Below, piece by piece: positions 7,285 through 32,865 of a stretch of 38,656 bases of DNA. The stretch comes from an uncultured Lachnospiraceae bacterium (lineage in GTDB: Bacteria; Bacillota; Clostridia; Lachnospirales; Lachnospiraceae): contig CAMVGV010000024.1 of the NCBI GenBank assembly GCA_947167135.1, positions 1 through 38,656 on the forward strand. Reading direction: 5' to 3'. How positions within the stretch are numbered: the stretch's first letter is position 1; every line of letters begins with the position of its first letter. Under the pieces are notes generated by a model, which saw only the letters and a program-made list of their open reading frames with translations, made no database searches and was not told the origin of the DNA. The position numbers and the translations under genes were made by a program.

Positions 7285-9264
7285 TCAAAGCTTGAAGAAT
7301 TCCAGATCCTCTTCCAGCTTCTTTGCCAGGTCATTAAGATCAGCCGCAGACTGTGAAAGCACATTGACCGTAGCATTCAGCTCCTGCATGGATGCACTGG
7401 TCTCTTCTGTAGATGCTGCATTCTCCTGTGATATGGCGGAAAGTGAATCCATGGCATCCACGATTATGGTCTTGCTGGCGGCACTTTCCTCAGAAAGTCC
7501 GGAAATGGTGGATACCCCGTCAACAGTGGATCCCACACCGCTTATCAGCTCATTTATCGTATTGACCGTGTTGTGGAGAACCTCGTTTACGCTGTTTCCG
7601 ATCTCCGTAACCTCTCCGGTCTTTGTAATAGCGTTTTTGGACTGGCTAAGGAGCTTTGTCATCTCGCTCCTTATCTCCTCCGCTGTCTGGGCGGACTCTG
7701 TGGCAAGCTTCCCTATCTCCTCAGCCACAACCGCAAAACCGCGGCCTGCTTCTCCCGCTCTTGCCGCTTCAATGGAAGCATTGAGGGCGAGAAGGTTTGT
7801 CTGTGAAGCAATGGAGGTTATGCCGTCAACCCTTTCATTAACCGCGTGAACCGCCGCATTTGTGGCATTCATTCCATCCGTGATCTCCTGCATTGCGGCA
7901 CTCATATTGTCCATATTTGCAGAAAGCCTGGTCAGTGCATCTGCGGAAGAGGTACTGGAGTCGTTCATTGATGATGCTGTCGACGCAAGAGTCTCGGCAT
8001 TATTGGCAACATTCTGTATGGCATCGGAAAGTGTTCCGATATTTTCCGTTGCTCTCTGGATAGTATCTGCCTGCTCGGTAGCGCCCTTTGCAACCTCCTG
8101 TACCGCTTCGGACACATCATCGGTGGTCTGGCTTATCTGTCCGGCAGTTTCCGCAAGAGCCTGTGACGACTCGCTTACGGAATTCATGACATTTTTCAGA
8201 TCCGTCACCACTCCCCTGACATGATCCAGGACGCTGTTGGTATTATCAACGATATTTCCGAATTCATCCCTTCGTCCCGCATATCCCCTGATCTCCTTAA
8301 ACTCACCCTCTGCAAAGGCAGAAAGGCTTTTATTGATCGCGTTAATCGGCCTCACAAAGGACTGTGCGGTGACAAGGACAACGATCACCGCAAGTATGAT
8401 AAGAATAACTCCGATAACTGCGATCACAATGGCGCTGGATCTCGCATGAGCCGTAGCATCTTTAAGGTTAATGGCGTTGACTACCCTCCATCCGGATACA
8501 GGCTCCTTCATATATGCCATCATAGCAGTATATCCCCTGCCTGTATCAGCGGTGTATGTACCCTCATCCAGTCCGGAGGTCATAAACCGGGACTTGCTCC
8601 TGTCGTCCTCATCTCCCGGTTCGATCGAATACTGGGAATGTGCGGCTACTATACCCTTACTGTCCGCCAGGAAGCCGTCTGACGTAGCTCCCGCCAGGAA
8701 ATCATGCAGATACTCCAGATCCACATTTCTCTGAACAATACCGATGACGGCCGTTCCGTCTCCGTTATATACTGGTGTCGACAACGTCATTATGCGGCTG
8801 CCGCTGGACTTGCTGACTATCATATCGGAAACAAAGTGCTTTCCCGCCATTGCCTCCTTAAAATAATCCCTGTCCGCCACATTCACACAGTCTCCCTTTG
8901 TCCGGAAGAGCTGCTGTCCGGAGGTATCGGATACCGCTATGACATTACCGTCTCCAAAGTGGTCATTCACCACGTTCAAGTAGTAAATGATATCCCCTTC
9001 CAGTCCGTCAAAATTCTCTCCGGACAAAAACATCTTTATCTCCGGCGATGCTGCCACTGCATCGATCGCCGCAAAATTCTCCTCCAGAGTCCCGGAAAAC
9101 TCCGCTTCTATCTGGCGGCAGGTAAGCATATTCTGGAGACCCGCATCCTCCATGGCCTTATCCGTGATGGACCTGTAACTGATGATCAGAAGCACCGCTC
9201 CCATAATGATAAGCGGTACCAGCGCCATAATAAGAAGCTGCGTCCTTACCTTGAATTTTGACAT
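7285..9264 (-). CDS. methyl-accepting chemotaxis protein with Cache-type sensor
   Basis: Transmembrane chemoreceptor, 659 residues from the ATG at 9264. That start is preferred over an in-frame ATG at 9309 because GGAGGGAGAG lies just upstream and the protein then opens with the first helix (residues 8-28). An extracytoplasmic double-Cache-like sensor follows (about 35-270; [19 protein letters not shown] is typical of the family), then helix 277-299, a HAMP linker and the signalling domain with hairpin tip [20 protein letters not shown] and [13 protein letters not shown]. No CheR-binding pentapeptide is visible at the C-terminus (LEFFKL). The ligand is unknown. It lies between rsmA and yfhO and is probably co-transcribed with them. 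Confidence 0.92.
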
Positions 9265-9305
9265 TTTATCTCTCCCTCCATAAATTCTCCGTAATGCAAA
9301 GTATA

Positions 9306-10148
9306 TCACTTTCCCAATAAATCCGACAACCTTACAAATTCCTCCAGAGAAAGCTGTTCTCCTCTTACAGTCGTCCCCTTTCCGAGAAGCTCAATGGCTT
9401 CGACAATTCTATCCGGGGAACAGGTGATCCCGGGATAGTTTTTCAGCCCGTTCGCAAGAGTTTTCCTGCGCTGATTAAAGGAGGCTCTTATAATATCGAA
9501 AAGAAGCTTCTCGTCTGCCACACTTACCGGCGGCTCCTTCCTGACTTTTAGGTGCACCACGGTTGAAGAAACCTTTGGCCTGGGGATAAAGCACTCCGGA
9601 GGGACCTCCGTTACCGCTTCTGCCTCGGTGCGGTACAAAACCGCCAGGGTCAGGGCTCCGTAGGTCTTTTTCCCGGGAAGTGAAAGCATCCTCTCTGCCA
9701 CTTCCTTCTGCACCATAACCGTCATGCTGTCTATTGGCGCTTTCGACTCCAAAAGCTCCATAATGACCGGAGTCGTAATATAATAAGGCAGATTCGCAAC
9801 GACCCTTATATGTCCTCCCTGTTTCCTTCCCCGGACCAGCTCCCCTATATCGGTCTTCAGAATGTCGGCATTTATTATCCGGACATTTTCTCTTCTGCCA
9901 ACACTGTCTTCCAGCACGGGAATGAGCTTTTTATCTATCTCGACCGCTATCACCTCTCCGGCGCCTTCACTTAGAAAAGCCGTTAATGCCCCGGTTCCCG
10001 GTCCGATCTCAAGGACCGTATCCTCCTTTGTGACCTCAGAAGCCTCTACTATACGCCTCAGCACATTCTCATCCCTTAGAAAATTCTGTCCGTACTTTTT
10101 CTTGGCCCTTACATCATATTTTTTTATTACTGCAGCTGTCCCGGTCAA
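9306..10148 (-). CDS. rsmA: 16S rRNA dimethyladenosine transferase RsmA/KsgA
   Basis: SAM-dependent enzyme that dimethylates two adjacent adenines near the 3' end of 16S rRNA during small-subunit maturation. The 280 residues match the family's length. Visible landmarks are [10 protein letters not shown] (17-26), the SAM-binding loop [11 protein letters not shown] (46-56), the acidic EID (70-72), the catalytic NLPY (119-122) and the C-terminal [13 protein letters not shown]. The start is TTG at 10148, overlapping the tatD stop by four bases, with GGGGG a few bases upstream. Pairing with tatD is common in Bacillota, but the usual intervening rnmV is absent. Confidence 0.96.
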
Positions 10149-19111: not shown

Positions 19112-19131
19112 GCAGGGTTTACCTGCTTTTT
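19112..19131 (+). terminator. intrinsic terminator after the small zinc-ribbon gene
   Basis: GCAGG-GTTTA-CCTGC followed by TTTTT on the plus strand. Its last bases overlap the stop codon of the convergent marR gene. On the minus strand no T run follows, so the fatty-acid operon has no clear terminator of its own here. Confidence 0.65.
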
Positions 19132-19570
19132 ATGTTACATTTATTTCCGGCATCAGCTCGGTTCTGATTATCTGCATCATTGAATCCAGATCTTCCATTT
19201 CTTTTTCGGAAAATCTTTTTTTACATCTTTCGACCACTGTATTTATATAATCCTGACTTATCCGGTAATACCTCATATATTTTTCCGTCGGACGGAGATG
19301 AAATTCCCTCTTGTCGTTTTCCGACTGCTTTTTTTCTATATATCCCTTTTTCACAAGACTGTTTACCTTGTAAGCCGCATTAGGGCTGGAAATCCCCATT
19401 AAATGCGCAAACTCGGATACGGTTGGCTCCCCCAGATACTTTATGCACTCCATGGAAAAAGACTCAACCGCTGTCAGGGTCGCCTCCTTTGTCTCAAATT
19501 TTGAATATATCTGCATATAGAAATACACCCGGAGGGCACTGTACAGATCGTTCAAGGACTGGCTGAGCAC
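19130..19570 (-). CDS. MarR-family regulator of the fatty-acid operon (FabT-like position)
   Basis: Winged helix-turn-helix protein of 146 residues. The DNA-binding part is PTVSEFAHLMGISSPNAAYK with wing VNSLVKKGYIEKK...NDKREFHLRPT. It is the last gene of the fab cluster, starting at GTG 19570 two bases after the fabZ stop, with GGAGGG upstream inside fabZ. In many Bacillota a MarR regulator (FabT) comes first in the fab cluster and represses it together with acyl-ACP. Here the same role is proposed from the reversed position and from the operator-like repeats at the acpP promoter. It could also control something else. Confidence 0.8.
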   Translation of the reverse strand: MLSQSLNDLYSALRVYFYMQIYSKFETKEATLTAVESFSMECIKYLGEPTVSEFAHLMGISSPNAAYKVNSLVKKGYIEKKQSENDKREFHLRPTEKYMRYYRISQDYINTVVERCKKRFSEKEMEDLDSMMQIIRTELMPEINVT

Positions 19571-26249: not shown

Positions 26250-26278
26250 GTGTTACATAGTAATAATAACTCAAAATG

Positions 26279-26306
26279 ATTTAGCTAAATTTCTTTTAAC
26301 TAAATC
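26279..26306. promoter_or_regulatory. candidate MarR/FabT-type operator of the fatty-acid operon
   Basis: The perfect 12-base palindrome ATTTAGCTAAAT (26279-26290) is followed 15 bases on by a near copy, TTTAACTAAAT (26295-26305). The pair covers the predicted transcription start just downstream of the -10. Paired AT-rich sites with TTTA/TAAA arms suit a small winged-helix dimer, and the operon itself ends with a MarR gene. Confidence 0.6.
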
Positions 26307-26315
26307 ACCTTGAAA

Positions 26316-26350: not shown

Positions 26351-27340
26351 TCAGTATACGTTCTCCACCAGTATCTCTTCGCCCTCCGGGCGGAAGCGCC
26401 ATATCGAATGCTCCGGAAGACGGTGCTCGGTTAAATAGTATTCTCCGTCGATTTCCGAGATAAAATAAGGGGTTCCGCCTCCGATGAAATAATGATAGAT
26501 GTCTTCATATTCATTATTCTGCAGACCCCTTAAAGAATGGCATCGTAATATCGTGGCATAGTCCTGATTCCATTTATCATCGGTCGATACCGTGATATAA
26601 AAGTACTCACCGATCCGGGTTATCTGTATCATACCCGCCATAGATGAAGGCACCGGATATCTTTCAAGTATTTCAAAGGTGTCCGGATCCGCCTTTAGTA
26701 TGCTCTTATTCCCTGAAACAAAATAAATCCCGTCACCGATAAGCGAGAAAGAGCGCACATAAACCCCATTGAGCTCCGGAACGGATTTCACGTCGGAGAT
26801 ATACAGGCTCCCGTCCTTCTTATCATCCTTAAAAATATACATTTCCCCGCTCATTGAGCACCAGACATAAAAGGCTTCCCTCTCCTTATCATAAACAATG
26901 TAATGGGGACGGGATGTGATATTATCGAATATCTGCGTAAGGGTGAAGCCATCTCCCTGTTTTTTATAGACGAGGATACGGTCATTTTCCGTGTCATCGG
27001 TCAGATAGACCCTTCCGTCACCGGCAAGGGTATGACCTTTATTGATCTCATCTGTCATCACAGACCAGTCCTCAAGAGGATCATCCGTATTGTCATTAAA
27101 GATGATCTGGTTATGATAACAGTCAACGATAAAGTAATCGTCACCGATCTTCGTTATCTGTGTCGGAATATCAAGAGAATTGAAGCTGTTCTTTTCCGGG
27201 GCTACAGATACGGCGGCTGCGCTATCCGTCTTCTCTACGCTTTCCGGCTCCGGGGACGCTTTTCCGTTGGCACAGCCGCTTAAAAAAAGAGCGGAAAGCA
27301 GCAGGATCCGGATGCCATAAAGCAGGATTCTGTTAAACAC
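26351..27340 (-). CDS. exported lipoprotein, probable beta-propeller
   Basis: About 329 residues from GTG 27340. That start gives a compact lipoprotein signal ([18 protein letters not shown], lipobox LSGC); an in-frame ATG at 27430 would add 30 polar residues and overlap the previous gene deeply. After a Ser/Glu-rich spacer the protein is a series of similar beta-strand blocks, each roughly 'G-D-x-Y-hydrophobic-hydrophobic' ([49 protein letters not shown]), about 45-55 residues apart. This suggests a six-bladed NHL/YncE-like propeller. It is the third gene of the sensory operon, overlapping the chemoreceptor-like gene by eight bases, so it may be the extracytoplasmic ligand-binding partner. 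The function is inferred. Confidence 0.7.
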
Positions 27341-29528
27341 GGGACTTCCCCATATCTTCCAGGCCGGCGTCAATCTCCGAAAGAAGTCCCCCTTTATTTT
27401 CCCGGGACTGAAGGGATGAGGCCGCTTCAAGAGTTTCTTTTCTCAGTTCACGGCTAAGCTTCTTCAGATCTTGAAGCTCTTTTTCGATGCCGGCGATATC
27501 TTCTGCCCGCTCAACGGTAAGATCCCCTTTATCAAGGATATGCTTCTTTGCATCAGCGAAGCCGTTCCTTGCCAGAGCCAGTCCTTCCTGCTGTTCCTTA
27601 GAATATTTTTCAAGCTGCTGCATAAGCTTATGGGTTTTTTCAAAATCCGAATTCAGTTTTTCAACGGTACTGCTTATTTCCTGAACAGATCTTTCCGTCT
27701 GTCCCGCGAGCTTTGATATTTCTCCCGCAACCACCGCAAAGCCGCGTCCCGCTTCACCGGCACGGGCAGCCTCTATGGAGGCATTCAGAGAAAGAAGATT
27801 GGTCTCACTTGCCACATCGGAGATGATCGTAGCAGCTTTATTAATATCCCTGACCGACCCGCCGGTCTCATCAAGCTGCTCTGTGATCCCTGTTATGCTT
27901 CTCCCGAGGCTTTCTCCGGAGCCTGAAAGGCTGTCCATAGCCTTTGCTGCATCCTGTAAGGCCTGTCCGCTCTCCTCTTTCATCCCGGAGGGCTTTTCCC
28001 TGAATTCTGCCAGACTGCCCTCCAGTTTATCCAGCTTTGTGTCAAAGCTGTCCAAAAGTGAAATTACCGTATCCAGCTCCTCCCTCCCGTTTCCGTACCC
28101 TCCTGACTCGGCGATCCTCTTACGGAGGGCAGCTGATCTCTCCTCTATTGCGATAAGGCTCTTTCTGAGTCCCAGGTTTTCCTCATCTCTCAGGCGTTCC
28201 TTATCCTCCCTTACCCGGCTCAGGGTTTCATTATCACGCATCCTTCTTATCGCGGAAAGACCCGTAAAGAAGAGCAGGGCTATCATAATAAGTGCAAATA
28301 CCGAAGCCAATACGGTAATGATCCCGATCCCCGTATTTCCCTTTGAAGCCCCCGATGCTGACGGCAGGGCGGCATGTGCCGGAGAATCCTTCCCGGGTTC
28401 ACTGCCTTTGACCTCCGGACTGCCTTCTTCTGTTCCGGAAACCTCCCCCTTCTCAAAAGCGGCTGCTTCCGTAGCTGCAGTATCCTCAGCATTCAGAATC
28501 GCTTCCTTTTCATCAAGACGCCCGGATATTTTGATAACCAGAGGATCTGTTTCCGGATATGCAGAAAGAGCGGTTCTCATTCCCGCAATGGCTGCTTCCG
28601 CATTTTCCTTTGCTTCCGCATTGTCCTGCCTGGCAGCAGCCTTGCTCCTGTATATCGCAAAAGCTTCATTTATGCTGTCAAAGCCGTCTATCCCCTCTTC
28701 CTTCCCGGTAAAATCACAGCCGGTGGTAAAGGTGAAGCCATTATTCTCACCAACAAAATACAGATCGTAATACACAGAGGAGAAGCCTGAAGAATCAAGG
28801 TCATTAAGTGGTATTTCCACCGATATCCGCTCGTCCTCCTGACTTCCAGTGAATTCAGCCTCCGCGCATATGCTGTCGGTACCATTGATCCTTGAAAGAG
28901 ATGTGCCCTGCAGAGCACTGCCATGGCATAACGAGAGATCCTCATCGGAAAGGGCTCCCATATCGAGAGCCTTTGAATCGTCAAACAATATCCCCGCAAT
29001 ATGTATTTTCCCCTTAAAGCTACCTCTGTCACCAATTACCCGAATAAGGGCATCTCTCCGTTTTGTCATTTCGGAAAAGCTTCCCCTGAAGCGCACCCGC
29101 AGTGCTTCTCCCTCAGGAAGCTTCACGGTCTCCATTTTGTCCAGGCTTACCCTTATCCTGTAGTTTTTGATAAGCTCAGGATCATCCTGTTTTAGGGCGC
29201 TAAGAGCGCTTCTTGCCTCACTGTCCCCGGCCGTAAAATCCGCGTATGCCTTCGCTTCGCCGCTGAAATCCGGCTCTGCTGCGGCACTTTCCGCCTGTTC
29301 GGCTCTCTCGGATGCTTCCTTTGCCAGGTTTTCCGCATCATCGGCTCTGGCATCACTCTCCGCCAGTGCAGAGGCATAGGCTGCCGCAGCAGCCTCCATA
29401 GCAGCTGCGTTTTCCTCTGCCGTCTTTACCCGTCCCGCGGAAACAAAGGAACATACCGCCAGCAGGATGACAGAAAAAACAGCCGCCAGCATTATCAGAA
29501 TGTTTTTCAAACCGTTTCCCGTATTCAA
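27333..29528 (-). CDS. methyl-accepting chemotaxis-like transducer with unrecognised sensor domain
   Basis: Protein of 731 residues. Helix 1 (about 8-30), an alanine/glutamate-rich coiled coil (35-85), a beta-rich extracytoplasmic domain (about 118-275) that I cannot assign to Cache, 4HB or PAS families, a helical and low-complexity segment (280-400), helix 2 (402-424), a charged coiled coil instead of an obvious HAMP, and then a chemoreceptor signalling domain. The hairpin tip [20 protein letters not shown] is conserved, but the next part reads [15 protein letters not shown], with glycine for the usual first glutamate. The start is TTG 29528, five bases after the kinase stop, with AAGGAG upstream. 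It probably passes a membrane signal to CheA/CheW or to the adjacent kinase. Confidence 0.8.
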
Positions 29529-29533
29529 AGAAT

Positions 29534-32500
29534 TTAATACTCCTTCAGTATCTCTACGATCCCTTCATAGTCGAACAGTGAATAAGCATTTTCCAGCTGT
29601 TCATAGCGTTCACTTTCACTGTCAGCAATGCGGAAGCCCTTCATTTTCTCAAATACGGACTCCAGCCTGTCTATATCCATCTTTTCTGCCGCATCCCTCA
29701 TTTCTTCATATACTTCTTTCATAAGCTCGGGACCGGCCGGCTGCAGATCCTCATTTGCCTTCCCGGTGAAAACATCGGCGAGCAGGGTCTTAAACTCCCG
29801 GAATTCCCGTAGAAAATCCTCATGATTCTCCCGGATATATTTCAGATCCCCCTTCTTTCCGGCATTTTCCAGGCTCTGGGCCCTTTCTCCGAGCCCTGTC
29901 GCCCCGATAAGCTTTGCAGAACTCTTCAGGGCATGCACCTTGATCGTGTAATTCTCTATATCCTCCGAAGCATAAAGATTCTCAATCTCATCCGATTTGC
30001 TTTCTATCGAATCATAAAAGATCTGTAACAGCGGCAGATACGCATCCGGAGAACCACTGTAATTAATCCCTTTGTCGATGTCGATCTCATTACAATGCTC
30101 CAGCACCTTGAGCGCACCGATCTCCCTGTTTCCGGGATCCCCGTCTTCTCTGTCCCCGTCTCCTATGACCGGAACCACCAGCTCCTCCGGCAGCATACTT
30201 ATAAGCATTTTATCAAGCTGCGCAGTATCAACAGGCTTCGACAGATAATCGTCAAAGCCCTCCGAAATGTATTTTTCCCTGGCTCCCGCTATGGCATTGG
30301 CAGTGAGACAGACAGCCGGTGTCTCCTTATTCGGATTGCTGTCATCCTCCCTGATCTCGTGCAGGGTTTCAATGCCATCCTTATCCGGCATCATATGGTC
30401 GAGAAAGATGAGATCGTATTTCTTTGACGCTGAAAGCTCCACCGCCCTGAACCCGTTCTCGGCAGTATCTATATGTACCCCGGTCTGTTTCAGAAGGCTG
30501 TTGAAAACCACCAGGTTCATCGGATTATCATCAACCGCCAGTATCTCAGCATCCGGAGCCGTAAACTTCTCTTTACAGGCTCTTCTCTTTTCCACATTCT
30601 CACGGAACGCAGACTCATAGTCTCCGAGCTCCGTCCACTTCGCAACTCCCTGCTTCAGGTCAAAACTGAAGGTGGATCCGACACCGTATGTGCTCTCAAC
30701 CTGAAGGGTCGATCCCATAAGCTTCAAGAGGCTCTCTGTCAGATTGATCCCCAGACCCACTCCCGCTATGTGACGGTTCTTCTTTTCTTCGATACGCTCA
30801 AATTCATTGTAGAGCTTTCTGATATCCTCTTCCCGGATACCGATTCCGGTATCGGTCACGGATATCTTCAGGATCACATTCCCCGGCTCATCCTTTATCT
30901 TTTCATACCCCACGCGGAAGGTAATACTGCCCTTTTCCGTATATTTTACCGCATTTGTAAGAAGGTTCATTATTACCTGCTTTATACGCTTTTCATCCCC
31001 GAACAGGTTTTTAGGTGTGCCGGGATCAAAATCAAGAATGATCTTTAAGCCCTGGGCATCCGCCCTGGTACGGATCATATTCACCATATCATTCAAAAGA
31101 TCCGAAAGATCATAAAAATCCGGCTTTATTTCCATTTCTCCTGATTCGATCCTGGAGAAATCAAGGATATTATTGACCAGACCCAGAAGGGTATTTCCCG
31201 CACTTCGTATGGTTTCGGAATATTCGACGATATTCGGGTTCTCACTCTCCCTGAATATCATTTCATTCATTCCGAGGATGGCATTTATCGGCGTCCTTAT
31301 CTCATGGGACATATTGGCAAGAAAGGCACTCTTCGCCCCGGCAAGACCTTCGGCAACGGCTTTCTCGGTTTCCAGCTCCTCAACCATGGTCTTTTCATAA
31401 TAAATACAGTTTTCCTTATGATTAAAGCCGTTATATATGGCGGTCGCCATCTTCCTGCAGCTCTCATATCCGCAGCAATTGCAGTTTATCTCCCTGGACT
31501 CGGGCGTAAGCTTATTCATGCTTACAAAAATGCCCTCCAGTTCCTTCTCATTTGGAATATCGTAACGGCATTCCTCAGAGCGGTCGGTATAGCCCCTTAG
31601 ATAATCCTCCAGCTTCAGGTTTTCAAACTGCTTATTAAAATTCTTCAGTCTTTCCTCCGGCGTATCTCCTCTGGACCAGGCGTCGCCGCTTTCGTCCTTC
31701 TTTGCCATCTCACGGATATCGAGAAGAGCATAATATGCGTCATCCGTCCTGGCCTTTTCCGGATTTACGGCAGTTCCGCAGATACAGCCGTTTTCACAGT
31801 TCAGGGCATCAATAAAGAGAAACGGGGTTTCCTTATCCCTGATCCTGTCTGCATTCTGGTGCATCCACTCATAGAGACGCCTTTCACCCTCGATCTGCCG
31901 GATAAACACCTGATCTCCGAGAAACCATTTGACGTTCTCCGCAAGCCCCCCCGGGGTGGGATAGAAAAGTCCGAGACCGTACTCGATATCGCTGTGGGAG
32001 AAATCCGCACTGATATTATGCTCCCTCACGTAATTCATCAAATGCTCGAAGGTAACATTATACTGTACCAGACCCCTGTTCTGCGGATCCTCCATCTCCA
32101 TCTTCTTTGCGATACAGGGGCTTATAAATGCAAATTTGTCGGTGACACCCATCTCCTTACGTGCATAGATCGCTGCGCACATCAGAGGACTCTGCACCGG
32201 AAAGAGCATGGGGATAAGCTCCGGAAGGTATCTTTCAATATATGAAACCACAGCGGGACAGGGCTGGGATATTCCCCCGTAGAACTTGTATCTGTCGATA
32301 TAATTAAGATATCCCCAGGTTGTAATGTCTGCACCGAAGGAAACATTTATTATCCGTTTTACGCCCAATTTCTTAAGGCCACCGATCACGTTTCCGTATT
32401 CTGAGGGGAAATTGGCTCTGAATGCCGGTGCGATAAGTATGGATATGGATTCCCCGTTTTTCAGATCCTCAAAGAAACGCTCCGTATCATCCTCATATTC

Positions 32501-32683
32501 ACGGGCTCCATGGACACAGACATCGATGCAGCTGCCGCAGGCAACACACTTGCTTCCGTCAACCTCGATCCTCGCGTGGCCGTTCTCCTCCTTGGAGATA
32601 CAGGCACCTATGGCACTGCAAACCTTGATACATTTATTGCAGCCTATGCAGTTATCATTTGTGAATACAATACTACCTTTCAT
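29534..32683 (-). CDS. FeFe-hydrogenase-like iron-sulfur hybrid sensor histidine kinase
   Basis: Soluble multidomain protein of 1049 residues with no membrane helix. Order: two ferredoxin 4Fe-4S motifs (Cys 12, 15, 18, 22 and 46, 49, 52, 56); an FeFe-hydrogenase large-subunit-like domain (about 75-330) with H-cluster ligand candidates Cys142 (SQPCPAV), Cys190 ([12 protein letters not shown]), Cys296 and Cys300 (NCENGCICG); a further CxxCGxxxC Fe-S motif (Cys 401, 404, 409, 426); HisKA with His460 (SHEIRTP); HATPase (Asn573/Asn577, DTGIGI, GVGLGI); receiver with Asp718/719, Asp762 and Lys816; HPt with His917 (HALKSSA). The proton-relay cysteine of catalytic hydrogenases is proline (141), so a sensing role is inferred. 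First gene of a three-gene operon. Confidence 0.9.
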
Positions 32684-32757
32684 TTCCTTTGCCGGTTCCG
32701 GAAACCATCCCGGTTCCTTCTGCGGATTCTCCGTATTATTCTGTCTTCCTGAAGATA

Positions 32758-32785
32758 ATAATACTATATTATGTAATTAAATCAA
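32758..32785 (-). promoter_or_regulatory. promoter of the sensory operon
   Basis: On the minus strand TTGATT (32785-32780), a 16-base spacer and TATTAT (32763-32758). The message would have a leader of about 70 bases before the kinase ATG, whose nearest purine-rich site is AAAGGAA. A TATAGT overlaps the spacer and could be an alternative -10. Confidence 0.5.
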
Positions 32786-32830: not shown

Positions 32831-32865
32831 GAAGGCCGTTATAAAAAGATATAATAACAGCCTTC
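32831..32865 (-). terminator. terminator after the PDZ protein gene
   Basis: A 12-bp stem with one mismatch (GAAGGCTGTTAT pairing with ATAACGGCCTTC on the minus strand), an 11-base loop and a short T run. It lies 64 bases after the PDZ gene stop and before the sensory-operon promoter. It is nearly symmetric, so it may work on both strands. Confidence 0.6.

What the first reader, a model, noticed from the sequence alone, without database searches (positions are those of the whole stretch)
26351..32785. Three-gene sensory operon: hydrogenase-like hybrid kinase, chemoreceptor-like transducer, propeller lipoprotein
Seen: one promoter, a 5-base gap and an 8-base overlap link the three genes. They combine a cytosolic Fe-S/H-cluster-like kinase, a membrane transducer with an unassigned extracytoplasmic domain, and an exported repeat-blade lipoprotein. 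Known: hydrogenase-like sensors (HydS-type) and hybrid kinases exist, but I do not know this trio as a described system. Inferred: outside binding (lipoprotein and transducer) and inside redox or H2 state (kinase) feed one response. No response-regulator output gene is present, so the HPt must act on a receiver encoded elsewhere.
Basis: partly seen in the sequence, partly recalled or inferred. Interest (0 to 1): 0.85.

Follow-up and report, generated by a model that had tools for sequence, protein, structure and literature searches.

The report
Hydrogenase-like sensor kinase beside a chemoreceptor
A bacterium related to Lachnospiraceae of the rumen carries a signalling enzyme whose sensor part looks like a repurposed hydrogenase, encoded next to a chemotaxis receptor and a surface propeller protein; the sensor belongs to a family that swaps its output parts, but the three-gene set is a local arrangement of a few close relatives and not a general system.

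Summary
The three genes are real and at the stated places. Gene 1 is a soluble hybrid kinase: two [4Fe-4S] motifs, an [FeFe]-hydrogenase domain keeping all four H-cluster cysteines, a Cx2Cx4Cx16C cluster domain, then HisKA-HATPase-REC-HPt without PAS. Its active-site residues resemble sensory group D, but in a quick tree its sensor falls in a separate clade whose members end in MCP, hybrid-kinase or GGDEF(-EAL) outputs. HydDB already names histidine-kinase-linked and chemotactic [FeFe] sensors (C1, C2, putative). In this genome and three close relatives an MCP-type copy lies beside hydE and hydG. Gene 2 is a two-TM chemoreceptor; its 'unassigned' outer domain looks like a circularly permuted CBM27-type jelly roll. 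Gene 3 is a six-bladed NHL-type propeller with a lipobox. The trio occurs in 3 of 48 genus genomes and kinase plus transducer in 5; elsewhere the genes have other neighbours, and in named relatives the kinase is more often near other hybrid kinases and a lone receiver protein. H2 binding and any joint response are inferred.

The parts
29534..32683 (-). Hybrid histidine kinase with a sensory [FeFe]-hydrogenase-type N-terminal half (1049 aa)
   Evidence: ORF; Pfam; no TM segment
32504..32659 (-). Two N-terminal [4Fe-4S] motifs (residues 9-60; Cys 12,15,18,22 and 46,49,52,56)
   Evidence: Pfam; each of the eight Cys present in 58 of 60 clade rows, the other 2 being gaps
31775..32446 (-). Fe_hyd_lg_C (H-cluster) domain, residues 80-303; motifs [22 protein letters not shown]
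   Evidence: PDB alignments cover the first two motifs well, the third only weakly
31406..31483 (-). Cx2Cx4Cx16C cluster motif (residues 401-426, in PF04060)
   Evidence: (22.8 bits, cut-off 23), position; four Cys in 60 of 60 clade rows
30650..31336 (-). HisKA (450-515) and HATPase_c (562-678); no PAS found before them
30203..30544 (-). Receiver domain (714-827)
29819..30031 (-). HPt domain (885-955)
27333..29528 (-). Membrane chemoreceptor-like transducer (731 aa, TTG start), TM at residues 10-28 and 403-421
28689..29183 (-). Extracytoplasmic jelly roll (residues about 116-280), CBM27-like in permuted order
27567..27923 (-). MCP signalling domain (536-654) with hairpin tip [20 protein letters not shown]
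   Evidence: E 1.7e-25
26351..27340 (-). Six-bladed NHL-type beta-propeller lipoprotein (329 aa, GTG start, lipobox LSGC)
26270..26314 (-). Inverted repeat between lipoprotein and acpP; terminator-like or an operator of the fab operon
   Evidence: terminator-like sites in the region 9 found, 8.6 expected, so not significant as a terminator
32758..32785 (-). Weak sigma-70-like match proposed as promoter (9 of 12)
   Evidence: not above chance

Best explanation
Gene 1 is a cytosolic H2- or redox-responsive phosphorelay kinase. H2 (or low-potential electrons delivered through the two N-terminal [4Fe-4S] clusters) changes the state of an H-cluster in the hydrogenase-type domain; the change passes through the Cx2Cx4Cx16C domain straight into the HisKA helix without a PAS relay, then His to Asp to HPt to a receiver encoded elsewhere, possibly a c3-type protein. 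Genes 2 and 3 sit in the same likely transcription unit but are separate devices: a chemoreceptor with a CBM27-like, possibly glycan-binding, outer domain that would signal to CheA/CheW, and a surface propeller protein. In this small clade they are probably co-expressed with the H2 sensor rather than parts of one machine. Shown: genes, domains, conserved ligands, a family with swapped outputs, limited conservation of the trio. Inferred: H-cluster occupancy, H2 as signal, direction of phosphotransfer, ligand of the chemoreceptor, co-transcription.
For: Three H-cluster Cys in 60 of 60 clade rows and the fourth in 59 of 60 (one gap); bridging Lys in 57 of 60. hydE, hydG and hydF in this genome beside the closest paralogue of the sensor, and hydE and hydG beside the MCP-type copy in the sister genomes G025, G027 and G028. 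The proton-transfer Cys is replaced by Pro, and Ser and Leu stand in place of the two Met, the latter two as in TamHydS (passages of PMC8163306). The same sensor is joined to MCP, hybrid kinase or GGDEF(-EAL): 29, 23 and 7 of 60 clade rows plus one interrupted MCP-type copy (17 of the 60 checked by Pfam); in the named scan 22, 43 and 9 of the 80 loci kept out of 212, with 6 cut or without a single ORF. The trio-clade kinases group together. A CheA and CheW are encoded on C8.
Against: No H2 binding or kinase activity is shown for any member. The Glu two places before the Met/Leu of the L3 motif in the catalytic, PAS-length and short rows (23 of 23) is Asp in 59 of 60 clade rows, and the residues around E279/E282 of CpI (numbering recalled) are not kept by my reading, so proton transfer is unexplained. 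A passage of PMC13104023 argues against the redox state of the C-terminal cluster carrying the signal in TamHydS. One clade kinase, L143, does have a PAS_3 domain. Operon status rests on adjacency only; the promoter match is no better than chance.
Confidence: 0.6

Rival explanations
1. One integrated sensory unit: propeller lipoprotein and transducer bind outside, kinase reads H2 inside, one joint response.
Against: Lipoprotein absent in 2 of the 5 pairs: no match in G018 and G028; in G018, whose transducer is split over two contigs, the next gene is acpP. Lipoprotein elsewhere mostly without HydS: 1 of 20 loci from other genera and 0 of 10 earlier ones (8 genus, 2 other genera) have HydS in the fetched flank (several flanks are cut by contig ends). 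Transducer without the kinase beside it in G040, G015, G004, G007. Kinase elsewhere with other partners.
Confidence: 0.13
2. The hydrogenase-like domain has lost the diiron site and works as a plain FeS redox sensor.
For: Proton-transfer Cys lost, Glu to Asp before L3; a third Fe_hyd motif that PDB alignments reach only weakly.
Against: All H-cluster Cys and nearly always the Lys kept across 60 diverse rows; the MCP-type copy is encoded beside hydE-hydG in four genomes.
Confidence: 0.25
3. The kinase is mainly one input of a multi-kinase network whose core is c1 (HK-REC), c2 (HK-REC-DegV-HPt) and c3 (receiver protein); the window clade has moved the kinase away from it.
For: c1 and c2 in 16, c3 in 13 of 43 named kinase-type loci; c1- and c3-like genes elsewhere in this genome.
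Against: 27 of 43 loci lack c1 and c2 within the flank (some cut by contig ends); no interaction data; c1-like kinases are common in the genus (38 of 48 genomes at E 1e-40), so presence alone says little.
Confidence: 0.35
4. Adjacency of the three genes is a chance product of insertions beside the fab operon, without functional meaning.
For: The next gene after the transducer is acpP in G018 and G040, and acpP follows after two other genes in G015, all without the lipoprotein; the kinase keeps its PDZ and malic-enzyme flank in window, G025, G027 and G028.
Against: Kinase-transducer order and strand kept in 5 genomes spanning notable divergence.
Confidence: 0.3

Closest known systems
HydDB [FeFe]-hydrogenase groups C1 (histidine kinase-linked, putative) and C2 (chemotactic, putative)
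   Same: Hydrogenase-type sensors linked to histidine kinases or to methyl-accepting chemotaxis proteins (passage of PMC5037454); C2 genes reported from rumen metagenomes (passage of PMC10811737).
   Different: HydDB defines them by clustering and linkage; I could not compare with its reference sequences. Here kinase, MCP and GGDEF(-EAL) outputs are fused to one sensor clade, usually without PAS (1 of 17 Pfam-checked clade proteins, L143, has one).
Group D (M2e) sensory hydrogenase TamHydS
   Same: Two N-terminal clusters, H-domain, Cx2Cx4Cx16C, no PAS, Ser and Leu in place of M353 and M497 (passages of PMC8163306).
   Different: TamHydS has Ala at C299 (passage of PMC10407848) and no fused output; the window sensor has Pro, Asp before L3, a fused hybrid kinase, and a clade apart from short M2e-like rows.
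Group C (M2f) TmHydS
   Same: Same modular start and C-terminal cluster domain.
   Different: Has PAS, and Gly and Ser at M353 and M497; the PAS-length rows form another clade.
Hybrid histidine kinases of the BarA/TorS/ArcB type
   Same: Kinase-receiver-HPt order (one search matches, all below the curated cut-offs).
   Different: Hydrogenase-type soluble sensor instead of theirs.
CBM27 mannan-binding modules
   Same: Profile similarity and predicted jelly roll.
   Different: Order of the halves is permuted, the whole transducer has no Trp, and it sits in a chemoreceptor.

Membership tests
Sensory [FeFe]-hydrogenase (HydS, broad sense) | Four Cys ligands of the H-cluster [4Fe-4S] part | tested here: met
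   Cys in 59/60 (one gap), 60/60, 60/60, 60/60 clade rows; window has all four
Sensory [FeFe]-hydrogenase (HydS, broad sense) | C-terminal Cx2Cx4Cx16C domain | tested here: met
   (Pfam 22.8 bits, just under its cut-off of 23)
Sensory [FeFe]-hydrogenase (HydS, broad sense) | Maturases HydE, HydF, HydG in the genome | tested here: met
   all above curated cut-offs, contig C81
Sensory [FeFe]-hydrogenase (HydS, broad sense) | Binds H2 and signals | not testable with these tools
   needs protein work
HydDB group C1/C2 | Clusters with HydDB C1 or C2 reference sequences | not testable with these tools
   reference sequences not held
HydDB group C1/C2 | Linked to histidine kinase or MCP | tested here: met
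   fused
Group D (M2e) | Ser at M353 and Leu at M497 (CpI numbering) | tested here: met
   S 56/60, L 57/60; window S and L
Group D (M2e) | No fused output, M2e length | tested here: not met
Group D (M2e) | Same clade as short M2e-like proteins | tested here: not met
   9 short rows form one clade (100), window clade of 60 rows separate (100); quick tree, group names assigned by architecture and motif, no named M2e sequence included
Group C (M2f) | PAS domain after the C-terminal cluster | tested here: not met
   none at E 0.1 or better; HisKA follows directly
Methyl-accepting chemotaxis protein (gene 2) | MCP signalling domain, two TM, CheA and CheW in the genome | tested here: met
Methyl-accepting chemotaxis protein (gene 2) | HAMP domain | tested here: inconclusive
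   no Pfam match at 0.1
CBM27 (outer domain of gene 2) | Pfam match over the cut-off | tested here: not met
   window: 0 families at E 1; 2 of 14 alignment members match, one over the cut-off (L173, 30.2 bits against 20)
CBM27 (outer domain of gene 2) | Jelly-roll fold like CBM27 | tested here: inconclusive
NHL-type six-bladed propeller (gene 3) | Fold | tested here: met

The most novel reading that the evidence does not exclude
In one lineage related to rumen bacteria an H-cluster phosphorelay kinase and a chemoreceptor with a permuted CBM27-like glycan-binding domain form a real unit, so that swimming towards plant polysaccharide and H2 tension inside the cell are read together; the sensor clade as a whole is an H2-sensing module, mostly free of PAS, that plugs directly into kinases, chemoreceptors and c-di-GMP enzymes.
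Probability: 0.12. Interest if true: 0.8.

Novelty: new variant of a known kind. Interest (0 to 1): 0.52.

Why it matters
How group C/D sensory hydrogenases pass their signal on is open: Land 2020 raises the question for group D, and a 2026 paper challenges the redox-relay idea for the C-terminal cluster (passages). A clade in which the same hydrogenase-type sensor is joined, usually without PAS, to kinase, MCP or GGDEF-EAL outputs makes this testable: kinase or cyclase activity of a matured protein with and without H2. The named relatives are mostly Lachnospiraceae, many of them with titles that name rumen or other ruminant gut samples, where H2 governs fermentation and methane (general knowledge). 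A trio-bearing isolate record exists (Lachnospiraceae bacterium AD3010).

Tried and rejected
Rejected: (1) the trio as a conserved system. (2) The promoter match as evidence. (3) Filing the sensor as group D: Ser/Leu fit, but Pro at C299, Asp before L3, the fused output and the tree do not. (4) The lipoprotein as a regular partner of HydS (1 of 20 and 0 of 10 loci). (5) Filing the outer domain as plain CBM27: the window sequence has no Pfam match, the order is permuted and there is no Trp.

Led nowhere: PDB sequence search with one distant receptor (no match); Pfam at loose E on the outer domain gave mostly chance families. The plain profile comparison of the outer domain with CBM27 found only 30 columns. 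The Foldseek 'pdb' search was never run, so only the second look pdb_via was used; families not listed there are not excluded. No complex model of lipoprotein with transducer could be made. The tree is a quick one with SH-aLRT only, and several long rows (L142, L141, L137) are unsure. Output labels came from motifs, local hits and, for seven GGDEF rows, my own list; Pfam then checked 17 of the 60 clade proteins (window, nine, seven), among them all seven GGDEF rows (five with EAL) and 8 of 29 MCP rows; the labels held. Of 89 sensor-like rows, six partial or odd ones were dropped before (L203, L219, L149 4192-5499, L150 2-925, L146 3-1712, L145 150-1610; recounted). The CBM27 set used as a yardstick (7 sequences) consists of weak Pfam matches itself (E 1e-7 to 4e-3, one under the cut-off).

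Literature: in the listings and passages from searches I saw no paper on the trio or on a GGDEF-EAL fusion of this sensor; the library holds open-licence papers only. What I read of papers were passages found by term, never whole texts.
Full report
WHAT IS THERE. The window is contig C24 of a 2.9-Mb genome. On the minus strand lie a 1049-aa kinase (29534-32683), a 731-aa transducer (27333-29528, TTG start, 5 bases after the kinase stop) and a 329-aa lipoprotein (26351-27340, GTG start, overlapping by 8 bases). Pfam gives the kinase Fer4-type motifs, Fe_hyd_lg_C, FeS (22.8 bits, cut-off 23), HisKA, HATPase, receiver and HPt; the transducer an MCP signalling domain; the lipoprotein only a sub-threshold NHL repeat. 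Hydropathy finds no membrane segment in the kinase and two in the transducer, residues 10-28 and 403-421. The proposed promoter is no better than chance.

THE SENSOR. The Pfam hydrogenase profile is matched nearly end to end (3-244 of 245). Against solved hydrogenases the N-terminal half aligns over the [4Fe-4S] motifs and the first two H-cluster motifs; the third is reached only in weak, insignificant second stretches. In my alignment of 83 sensors the clade of 60 to which the window belongs keeps the H-cluster Cys in 59, 60, 60 and 60 rows (the one miss is a gap) and the bridging Lys in 57. The proton-transfer Cys is Pro in 57 of 60; the two Met that frame the diiron site are Ser (56) and Leu (57). 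The 9 short, M2e-like rows have Ala/Ser/Val (6/2/1), Ser (8 of 9) and Leu (8 of 9); the 12 PAS-length rows have Cys (11 of 12), Gly (12) and Asn/Ser/His (8/2/2). Published group D TamHydS has Ser and Leu there and group C TmHydS Gly and Ser (passages of PMC8163306), and both have Ala at C299 (passage of PMC10407848). My PAS-length rows mostly keep Cys at that place, unlike TmHydS; I assigned group names by architecture and motif, not by reference sequences.

SWAPPED OUTPUTS. In a quick tree the 60 window-type sensors form one clade (SH-aLRT 100) apart from the 12 PAS-length rows (98) and the 9 short rows (100). Outputs within the 60: MCP 29, hybrid kinase 23, GGDEF with or without EAL 7, one interrupted MCP-type copy. 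Pfam checked 17 of them: the window kinase; MCP in L151, L131, L132, L134, L140, L144; MCP plus receiver in L113, L114; GGDEF-EAL in L117, L118, L167, L168, L170; GGDEF in L141, L161; and a kinase with a PAS_3 domain in L143. So the clade is mostly, not wholly, free of PAS. The 20 kinase-type rows from the window's genus form one clade (100) that lies among MCP-type rows, so an MCP-to-kinase swap is the simpler reading. A scan of named genomes kept 80 of 212 related stretches: kinase 43, MCP 22, GGDEF-EAL 9, cut or no output seen 4, no single ORF 2. Titles are mostly Lachnospiraceae, many naming rumen or other ruminant gut samples, with Butyrivibrio sp. CB08 and Roseburia hominis An869 (the last among the two without a single ORF).

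LINK TO THE H-CLUSTER. This genome has three Fe_hyd_lg_C genes: one with the catalytic motif TSCCP (C102, cut by the contig start), the window kinase, and an MCP-type sensor on C81 that is interrupted by a frame change in this assembly and is followed by hydE, hydG and hydF, all over their curated cut-offs. In G025, G027 and G028 the intact MCP-type gene is likewise beside hydE and hydG; hydF was not in those fetched stretches.

NEIGHBOURHOODS. In 48 genus genomes the transducer's outer domain matches in 10, nine strongly and G005 only at 8e-4. The lipoprotein matches in 11 of these 48 and in 13 of 117 relatives. Trio: window, G025, G027 (in G025 the lipoprotein is split over two contigs). Kinase plus transducer without lipoprotein: G018 and G028. 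Transducer without the kinase beside it: G040, G015, G004, G007. Of 20 kinase-type loci typed in 19 genus genomes, 5 have the transducer and 15 do not; in two of the 15 the contig ends at the kinase (L106, L107), but their genomes lack the transducer altogether. In G018 and G040 the next gene after the transducer is acpP, as it is after transducer and lipoprotein in the window. Among 43 named kinase-type loci the transducer is near 3 (by contig the records of G025, G027, G028), the lipoprotein near 2, c1 and c2 near 16, c3 near 13, c10 near 5. In Butyrivibrio sp. CB08 c1 is HK-REC, c2 HK-REC-DegV-HPt, c3 a 254-aa protein with a C-terminal receiver domain. Lipoprotein homologues occur in 22 of 299 family genomes; a HydS gene lies within the fetched flank in 1 of 20 loci from those genomes and in 0 of 10 earlier loci (8 genus, 2 other genera), plus the separately found L272.

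VERDICT. The best-supported novelty is the sensor clade: a hydrogenase-type sensor joined directly to several output types. HydDB already proposes histidine-kinase-linked and chemotactic [FeFe] groups (passage of PMC5037454), hence 'new variant of a known kind'.

Noticed in passing
window 26270-26314: Inverted repeat TGATTTAG...CTAAATCA just upstream of acpP; the fab operon ends in a MarR-family gene (19130-19570), so this could be a FabT-like operator (name recalled).
   Followed up: no
G000:C81 (L098 3860-5821): MCP-type HydS gene interrupted by a frame change in this assembly, beside hydE-hydG-hydF; intact copies exist in G025, G027, G028.
   Followed up: partly
L248 2804-6184 and the c2 cluster: Hybrid kinase with a DegV domain between receiver and HPt (Pfam-checked in L248 only); c2-cluster genes lie near HydS kinases in 16 of 43 named loci.
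   Followed up: partly
L248 6203-6967 and the c3 cluster; own genome C9:57856-58599: 254-aa protein with a C-terminal receiver domain and unassigned N-terminus; seven near-full-length homologues in this genome; at C9 it follows another hybrid kinase.
   Followed up: partly
L117, L118, L167, L168, L170 (Pfam); L282, L284 and others (local hits): Same hydrogenase-type sensor fused to GGDEF-EAL: possible H2 control of c-di-GMP.
   Followed up: partly
L113, L114: HydS-MCP proteins with an added C-terminal receiver domain.
   Followed up: no
window 32831-32865: 12-bp stem with 11-base loop between PDZ gene and kinase, seen by eye; possible terminator missed by the scanner's loop limit.
   Followed up: no
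window 7285-9309: A second chemoreceptor in the window, with a dCache outer domain.
   Followed up: no
L080 6878-9691 (G027): A membrane hybrid kinase directly upstream of the HydS kinase in one trio genome; similar genes (c10) near the kinase in 5 of 43 named loci, this one included.
   Followed up: partly
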